From: Sistotremastrum niveocremeum HHB9708
Taxonomy: Eukaryota > Basidiomycota > Agaricomycetes > Sistotremastrales > Sistotremastraceae
Length of the DNA stretch: 64,000 bases
Assembly (NCBI GenBank): GCA_001630475.1
Contig: KV419407.1
Span: 124,001-188,000, forward strand
Direction: 5' to 3'
The notes below the pieces were generated by a model. It had not been told where the DNA came from and did not search any database. It worked only from the letters and a program-made list of their open reading frames with translations. Positions 20,229 through 21,170 of this stretch are shown in pieces; positions within the stretch are counted from its first letter, which is position 1; the number at the start of each line of letters is the position of its first letter. The translations under genes and the position numbers were made by a program.

Positions 20229-21170
20229 CTACACAATGATACATCGTGACTTTTTTGAGCGCGAAGGTCTCCTTTCCTGTTCCGGTTTGCCGGCTGGGGG
20301 TAGGGGCGGACGGGGGTTGTTTGATGCAAAGGCATCACCACTGGCTCCCACTCGGCTCCCACGGAGATTGCGTACCAATGTCATGAATAGTCTGTCCACA
20401 TTCTGTGCCGTCCTTGCGGAGGTTTCCAGAAATTCACATTCCAGTGAGTTGGCCATCCGTTGCCCCTCGTCACGGGAGACCTCGCGTTCCGAAGCCTTGT
20501 CCGACTTATTGCCAACAAGCATCACGATATGCTTGCCGCGTTTGACGCGACTCATTGACTGTCGGAACACATCAAGACGGTCGAATGAGGCGCGGGACGT
20601 GATCGAGTACACTAGGATAAATCCTTGGCCTTCCCTGTGAAGTAGTCTCATCAGTGAAAGGAGTGGTTGCGGACACCATGGGTACACACCGAACCCATTG
20701 GTCCCGGAGGGTAGCATACTCCTCTGCAAAGAGTTTGAGCAGTCTGAAGGGAGCCCTTTTCGAAAGGAGGACTTACCCTGACCGGCAGTATCTATTACTT
20801 CCACGAAACACATTCGGTCGTCCACGACCAATTGTTTTCGATAGGCGTCTTCTATCGTTGGATCATACGTCTATGATTCAATAAACACGACTGATTACTT
20901 CAGAGATATGAAGTTTACGTACCTCTGTAGAGATTGATGAGTAGGGGTCAAATAGTATGAAAGAGTACGAGCTTACCGACGAAACACCCCAAAGTGAACT
21001 AGAGATGGTGGAATAAGCGACAAATTGCGTACGCAGATATCTGATAAGGTCATACCTGTACAGCCAACGCTGTCTACAGAGGGGTGAGATGACGGCCAGG
21101 TATCGGAGCTGAATTGACGTACTTTGCCTACACCGCCGTCACCGAGAACAGCAACTCTCCAACTATCCAT
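20229..21170 (-). CDS. Ras-like small GTPase
   Basis: Membrane-tethered signalling GTPase. The P-loop is VAVLGDGGVGK then TALAVQ, split by the first intron. The chain continues FTLGCFVETYDPTIEDAYRK (switch I), FVEVIDTAGQEEYATLRDQW (switch II), LVGNKSD (NKxD) and ETSAR. The tail is Pro-rich, then polybasic, then the CAAX box CIIV, so it should be prenylated. It looks like the Ras2/Rsr1-type branch of fungal Ras rather than classical Ras1, because it has GDGGVGKTA. The switch I motif can only be read if a 2-base exon (AG, 20923-20924) sits between introns 20925-20976 and 20871-20922, both 52 bases; it completes the Glu codon of FVETYDP. The start at 21170 is the only sensible ATG. Confidence 0.92.

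What the first reader, a model, noticed from the sequence alone, without database searches (positions are those of the whole stretch)
20869..20980. A 2-base exon in a Ras-like GTPase
On the minus strand, exon 3 ends ...TTCGTCG before GTAAGC, and the next exon starts ACGTATGATCC. Joined directly they give a stop. Between them lies CTACAG|AG|GTACGT, and inserting AG gives GTC GAG ACG TAT GAT, the conserved FVETYDPTIEDAYRK of switch I. The two flanking introns (20925-20976 and 20871-20922) are both 52 bases with normal ends. An exon of 2 bases is at the lower limit of what splicing can define and would test intron-definition models in fungi.
Basis: partly seen in the sequence, partly recalled or inferred. 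Interest (0 to 1): 0.8.

Follow-up and report, generated by a model that had tools for sequence, protein, structure and literature searches.

The report
Two-base exon in fungal Ras gene
A Ras signalling gene of a fungus appears to contain an exon only two bases long, and signs of the same exon, missed by gene annotation, turn up in public Ras records across mushroom-forming fungi.

Summary
On the minus strand of a Ras gene of Sistotremastrum (Sertulicium) niveocremeum, exons 3 and 4 give the conserved switch-I peptide FVETYDPTIED only if a 2-base exon, AG (20924-20923), lies between two ordinary 52-base GT-AG introns. Of 267 enumerated splice models this one fits the family best.

(3) The same Val-Glu deletion occurs in 40 of 77 listed proteins with an NCBI source, from at least 11 Agaricomycete orders, and in 0 of 142 listed proteins without one. 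So the exon is probably ancient in Agaricomycetes and widely mis-annotated.

It is a new member of a known kind: 1-base exons are documented in plants and Fusarium. No cDNA of this species was available, and DNA was seen from one genome only.

The parts
21123..21170 (-). exon 1 (48 nt), MDSWRVAVLGDGGVGK, P-loop
21074..21122 (-). intron 1, 49 nt, GTACGT..TGTAG
21056..21073 (-). exon 2 (18 nt), TALAVQ
20999..21055 (-). intron 2, 57 nt, GTATGA..TCTAG
20977..20998 (-). exon 3 (22 nt), FTLGCFV plus first base of the Glu codon
20925..20976 (-). intron A, 52 nt, GTAAGC..CTACAG; TTGAC branch-like site 23 nt before its end
20923..20924 (-). 2-nt exon AG, completing Glu30 (GAG)
   Evidence: same exon in paralog
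20871..20922 (-). intron B, 52 nt, GTACGT..TCATAG
20777..20870 (-). exon 4 (94 nt), TYDPTIEDAYRKQ..TAGQ plus one base; switch I
20724..20776 (-). intron 5, 53 nt
20690..20723 (-). exon 5 (34 nt), EEYATLRDQWV region
20635..20689 (-). intron 6, 55 nt
20229..20634 (-). last exon (406 nt) with the C-terminal CIIV, CAAX-like
20871..20980 (-). rival reading: the single 110-nt intron implied by public protein P0001 (donor GTCGGT), which removes Val-Glu

Best explanation
The gene is a Ras-family GTPase in which the Glu codon just before switch I (Glu30, HRAS numbering) is split by an intron after its first base and followed directly by a second intron, leaving a constitutive 2-nt exon, AG. Shown from sequence: two normal-length GT-AG introns, the required frame, and the same structure in a paralog. 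Inferred: each intron is recognised across itself (intron definition), and the two are removed one after the other, because one acceptor and one donor lie 2 nt apart and can hardly both be occupied. The AG exon also supplies the exonic half of the second donor (AG|GTACGT), so removing intron A leaves a good donor next to exon 3. Skipping the exon gives FVDV-stop, so inclusion is needed for a full-length protein. The exon was probably present in an ancestor of most Agaricomycetes (inferred from gene models with the same deletion in at least 11 orders).
For: Enumeration of models with up to two introns of 35 nt or more: 267 for the focal gene, 48 open and in frame, best is the 2-nt exon at 85.1 against 72.4 for the next and 69.7 for the public model; 108 for the paralog, 16 open, best again the 2-nt exon at 14.7 against 4.7, public model -0.6. 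V/I-E at this place in 113 of the 120 best homologs listed, with an ungapped match to Rap1b and Rap2a. Paralog with identical exon sizes 48/18/22/2/94 and an AG exon; exon alignments score well above shuffles (z 5.0-6.8), intron A and B cores do not (z 1.0 and -1.2). Intron-length signal of this genome lies at 46-61 nt, with no clear excess at 90-160 nt; donor enrichment GTACGT 6.1, GTAAGC 3.7, GTTTGT 2.2, GTCGGT 1.07. Both A introns carry a TTGAC branch-like site 21-26 nt before the internal acceptor. Deletion of VE in 40 of 77 listed proteins with an NCBI source, 0 of 142 without.
Against: No RNA read or cDNA of this species was seen. The two B introns lack a YTRAY branch motif at a usual distance, as do three of the other ten introns of the two genes. 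Donors of type GTCNGT as a class show some intron enrichment (2.28), although GTCGGT itself does not. The public annotators chose another model; whether RNA supported it is unknown. No DNA of related genes from other species was found, so conservation beyond this genome is inferred from protein models. The profile used itself contains VE, so that test rests on conservation.
Confidence: 0.93

Rival explanations
1. A single 110-nt intron (20980-20871) with donor GTCGGT is removed, giving a Ras protein without Val29-Glu30, as in the public record P0001.
For: It is in frame and fits the deposited protein. The paralog's deposited protein P0188 and 38 deposited proteins of other fungi have the same deletion.
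Against: Removes two conserved residues; none of the 142 listed proteins without an NCBI source has the deletion. Within Suillus, Trametes, Schizophyllum, Phanerochaete, Boletus and Paxillus some models have VE and some do not, as expected of annotation error, though loss of an intron in some species could add to this. GTCGGT shows no intron enrichment, and 110 nt is outside the intron length peak. A false GTNGGT donor arises automatically from a Val codon + G + intron GT.
Confidence: 0.04
2. One long intron with non-canonical ends (GT..AT) runs from 20976 to 20873, keeping the AG that precedes ACG, so the same protein is made without an internal exon.
For: Gives the identical mRNA, because intron B ends in AG; protein data alone cannot separate it.
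Against: GT-AT ends are not a usual intron class (recalled). It does not explain YAG|AG|GTNNGT in the middle of both paralogs (chance of YAG|AR|GTNNG: 23 and 4 of 40000 shuffles), two halves of usual intron length, or the branch-like site in intron A.
Confidence: 0.02
3. The gene is a pseudogene or the assembly has an error here, and the AG exon is a coincidence.
For: None found.
Against: The rest of the gene is intact with a CAAX-like end, and the same structure occurs in a diverged paralog.
Confidence: 0.01

Closest known systems
1-nt exon of CYP621A in Fusarium (PMC12940212; abstract, first third of the text and discussion read)
   Same: Ultra-short exon in a conserved protein motif of a fungal gene, inferred from frame and orthologs during manual annotation, inside what otherwise looks like one overlong intron (139 nt in F. 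graminearum).
   Different: One base (AG|G|GT) in an ascomycete P450, with RNA reads. Here two bases in a basidiomycete Ras gene and a paralog, without RNA reads so far.
1-nt exons of APC11 and VPS55 in plants (PMC4674806, abstract and discussion read; PMC8831610, passages seen)
   Same: Exon below 3 nt, conserved over a wide clade and widely mis-annotated; sequential removal by intron definition proposed for APC11.
   Different: Plants, 1 nt, verified by RT-PCR and RNA-seq.
20-nt microexon of Xlr2 in Trichoderma (PMC11121469, passages seen)
   Same: Microexon in a filamentous fungus, missing from the JGI gene model.
   Different: Ten times longer and glucose-regulated; nothing is known here about regulation.
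Stwintrons, spliceosomal twin introns (PMC5639578, PMC9024468; only the start of the abstracts in a search listing)
   Same: Two adjacent introns that must be removed in successive reactions.
   Different: In stwintrons one intron interrupts a splice signal of the other. Here both introns have complete ends of their own and two bases between them stay in the mRNA.

Membership tests
Ras family GTPase (PF00071) | Match above Pfam gathering score over the whole G domain | tested here: met
   174.1 bits against a cut-off of 21.6, residues 6-163
Ras family GTPase (PF00071) | Ras spacing from P-loop Gly15 to Tyr32 | tested here: met
   17 residues with the AG exon (translation), 15 in the public model; of 219 listed homologs 177 have 17, 40 have 15, 1 has 21, 1 was not measured
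Ras family GTPase (PF00071) | C-terminal CAAX box | tested here: met
   CIIV at the C terminus in the translation; prenylation is not tested
Ultra-short exon (below 3 nt) | Canonical acceptor directly before and donor directly after the exon | tested here: met
   CTACAG|AG|GTACGT; paralog ATCCAG|AG|GTTTGT
Ultra-short exon (below 3 nt) | Needed for the reading frame and a conserved motif | tested here: met
   Without it FVDV-stop; best of 267 models. An in-frame model without it exists but loses Val-Glu
Ultra-short exon (below 3 nt) | Conserved in relatives | tested here: inconclusive
   Same exon in a paralog by DNA; in other species only inferred from VE-less models
Ultra-short exon (below 3 nt) | Present in mature RNA | not testable with these tools
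   No RNA reads available
Stwintron | Internal intron interrupts donor, branch site or acceptor of an external intron, leaving no exonic base between | tested here: not met
   Two bases needed in the mRNA; both introns have complete own ends

The most novel reading that the evidence does not exclude
A 2-nt exon in a core signalling gene has been kept since an ancestor of most Agaricomycetes (Phallomycetidae, Hymenochaetales, Russulales, Boletales, Agaricales and others) and through a gene duplication. Switch I of this Ras is therefore wrongly deposited for dozens of fungi, and obligatory one-after-the-other removal of two introns around a 2-nt exon is a long-lived, stable way of splicing in fungi.
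Probability: 0.8. Interest if true: 0.7.

Novelty: new member of a known kind. Interest (0 to 1): 0.6.

Why it matters
Switch I decides which partners Ras binds (recalled), and many deposited Ras models of mushroom-forming fungi lack two residues there. A widely conserved 2-nt exon also gives a natural, testable substrate for intron definition and the order of intron removal. It further suggests a cheap screen for hidden ultra-short exons: look for short in-frame deletions that recur at one place in gene models from genomes but not in proteins derived from cDNA.

Tried and rejected
Direct search for the spliced word in the own genome gave nothing, as expected of a split codon. An intron set picked from open reading frames was too noisy (137 candidates above the score, 34 in shuffled sequence); a codon-bias version crashed and then found one intron only, apparently because the codon signal was weak and words with N got into the model. 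Both were replaced by a donor-to-acceptor spacing contrast (on the window alone, on 264 kb). Related genes were sought in the prokaryote genome collection and the viral collection: 21 and 1 stretches matched a pattern, none encodes a relative. No close ortholog of the paralog was listed: after its own record P0188 the best hits are at most 54% identical. Literature searches: (9 of 10 allowed). None of the listings showed a 2-nt exon in a fungus or in a fungal ras gene; one search returned one paper, on sago palm, seen as a listing and not opened; PMC3990503 and PMC4014442 hold the word microexon once each, for a mapping option. That this exon is not in print rests on these searches of open-licence papers only.

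Full report
What was checked. The letters, coordinates and frame in the finding are correct. On the minus strand, exon 3 ends TTCGTCG at 20977, intron A is 20976-20925, the two bases AG are 20924-20923, intron B is 20922-20871 and exon 4 starts at 20870. With the AG, seven exons of 48, 18, 22, 2, 94, 34 and 406 nt give a 207-residue protein ending CIIV; without it translation stops after FVDV. The protein is a Ras-family GTPase (174 bits against a cut-off of 21.6) that aligns without gaps to Rap1b and Rap2a through switch I.

Source. The closest database protein, P0001, is 99% identical, is named Sistotremastrum niveocremeum HHB9708 and lies on a contig of 822740 bases, the length of the window's contig C14. 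NCBI taxonomy places the species in Sertulicium, order Sistotremastrales.

P0001 has 205 residues and reads GCF-TYDP: Val and Glu are gone. That corresponds to one 110-nt intron, 20980-20871, with donor GTCGGT. I enumerated the models with up to two introns (GT or GC donor, AG acceptor, 35 nt or more) between fixed ends and scored each peptide against a profile of 119 homologs (the 120 listed less P0001). Of 267 models 48 were open and in frame; the 2-nt exon scored 85.1, the next 72.4, the public model 69.7. The profile contains VE in most rows, so the test rests on conservation and is not independent of it.

Intron quality. In 264 kb of this genome (some 11 kb of it N), the distance from GTRNGT to a branch-like site plus YAG peaks at 46-61 nt: bins of 4 nt hold 31, 38, 53 and 20 there, against 5 to 18 from 62 nt up, the 18 at 114-117 nt. 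Donors used by the two-intron models are enriched (GTACGT 6.1-fold, GTAAGC 3.7, paralog GTATGT 4.0 and GTTTGT 2.2); GTCGGT is not (1.07, from 113 sites). GTCNGT donors as a class are enriched 2.28-fold, so the donor argument alone is moderate. Intron A has a TTGAC branch-like site 23 nt before its end; intron B has no YTRAY site at a usual distance. Of the 12 introns of the two genes, 5 lack one, both B introns among them.

Chance. Dinucleotide shuffles of the 106 nt between exons 3 and 4, keeping the first 6 and last 5 bases, give an AG|AR|GT exon with two introns of 44-62 nt in 283 of 40000, and with YAG and GTNNG in 23 of 40000. The paralog gives 33 and 4 of 40000. Among 1191 genomic spans of 100-115 nt between a GTRNG and a YAG, 10 and 2 qualify.

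A second instance. A Ras paralog on contig C36 (48% and 51% identical in the two pieces matched) has exons of 48, 18, 22, 2 and 94 nt, the same as here, with introns of 47, 53, 55 and 53 nt. Its 2-nt exon is also AG (C36:21687-21686). Exon alignments of the two genes score well above shuffled controls (z 5.0-6.8); intron cores do not for A (1.0), B (-1.2), intron 2 (0.8) and intron 5 (0.9), and hardly for intron 1 (2.2); raw percent identity in gapped alignments, 57-64% for introns and 59-72% for exons, does not separate them. The 2-nt exon is again the best of its 108 models (14.7 against 4.7), and its public protein P0188 again lacks VE. A third Ras gene, on C17 and of the Ras1 type, encodes HFVDEYDPTIE without an interruption there.

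Other species. The protein searches list only the best 120 of 1789, 2187 and 715 hits, so all counts are of listed proteins. Among the 120, four lack VE exactly here (P0001, P0093, P0101, P0107; all with an NCBI source), 106 have VE, 7 IE (one of them, P0109, with four extra residues), 2 VG and 1 IQ. A search with a VE-less N-terminal part, which favours such models whatever their source, listed 39 of 120; over both searches 39 of 187 lack VE, and the search with the paralog added P0188. Over all 219 listed proteins, 40 of 77 with an NCBI source lack VE and 0 of 142 without (by motif; by P-loop-to-Tyr spacing, where one of the 142 was not measured). Fisher p = 1e-22; alone 4 of 27 against 0 of 93, p = 0.002. 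The sequences are related and the second search was directed, so these p values are only indicative. Four control spacings around other parts of the N-terminal half show no such difference; 1-2 NCBI and 1-9 other proteins did not match the control patterns and were not looked into. The 142 come from the sources jgi, lgn, ena and eukprot, mostly on contigs of about 1 to 3 kb, and encode an uninterrupted protein, so most probably derive from cDNA; that is inference (one, P0217, is on a 34-kb contig; P0022 bears a label in the style of a transcript ORF). The VE-less models span at least 11 orders, by one looked-up species each: Sistotremastrales (this genome), Hysterangiales, Hymenochaetales, Gloeophyllales, Atheliales, Thelephorales, Corticiales, Polyporales, Russulales, Boletales and Agaricales. 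Within Suillus, Trametes, Schizophyllum, Phanerochaete, Boletus and Paxillus some models have VE and some lack it, as expected of annotation error, though intron loss in some species could add to it.

Why the error recurs. A Val codon (GTN), the G of the Glu codon and the GT of the intron together read GTNGGT, a false donor in frame with exon 4. A gene finder unable to place a 2-nt exon may settle on it. A different anomaly in Lentinula detonsa (P0109, FELPSIETYDP) would follow if an upstream acceptor in intron A were used together with the real intron B donor, since ..ATAG|AG| reads Ile-Glu; this is inference from protein only.

Mechanism (inferred). Acceptor and donor 2 nt apart can hardly be bound at the same time, so the two introns are most likely removed one after the other, each recognised across itself. 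The same is proposed for the 1-nt exon of Arabidopsis APC11 (PMC4674806, discussion read). Either order gives the right product on paper; I have no evidence for one. AG also makes the exonic side of intron B's donor a consensus match (consensus recalled).

What is known. 1-nt exons are documented in plants (PMC4674806; PMC8831610, passages) and in Fusarium CYP621A with RNA reads, reported there as the first fungal case (PMC12940212; [quoted passage not shown] No paper on a 2-nt exon in a fungal ras gene came up in the searches listed under Tried and rejected. So this is a new member of a known kind, with unusually broad inferred conservation.

Limits. No RNA from this species, DNA from one genome, and conservation elsewhere read from annotation errors. 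NCBI models that contain VE may have the exon correctly annotated or may have lost an intron; I cannot tell.

Noticed in passing
L008 1480-2298 (C36, minus strand): Ras paralog without a CAAX-like end (ends RALQTEH), at most 54% identical to any other listed protein apart from its own record and, in pieces, to the focal gene; may be a lineage-specific fast-evolving Ras.
   Followed up: partly
public proteins P0043, P0064, P0213: Three NCBI models read FVGTYDP where most others read FVETYDP; possibly another wrong joining around the same 2-nt exon.
   Followed up: no
public protein P0109: Lentinula detonsa model has ELPSIE in place of VE, as expected if part of intron A were read as exon up to ATAG|AG.
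   Followed up: no
window 21056-21073 and 20977-20998: Exons 2 and 3 are also very short (18 and 22 nt) and keep their sizes in the paralog.
   Followed up: partly
L039, L047: Two fetched stretches of the genome contain many N (2933 and 8336 bases).
   Followed up: no
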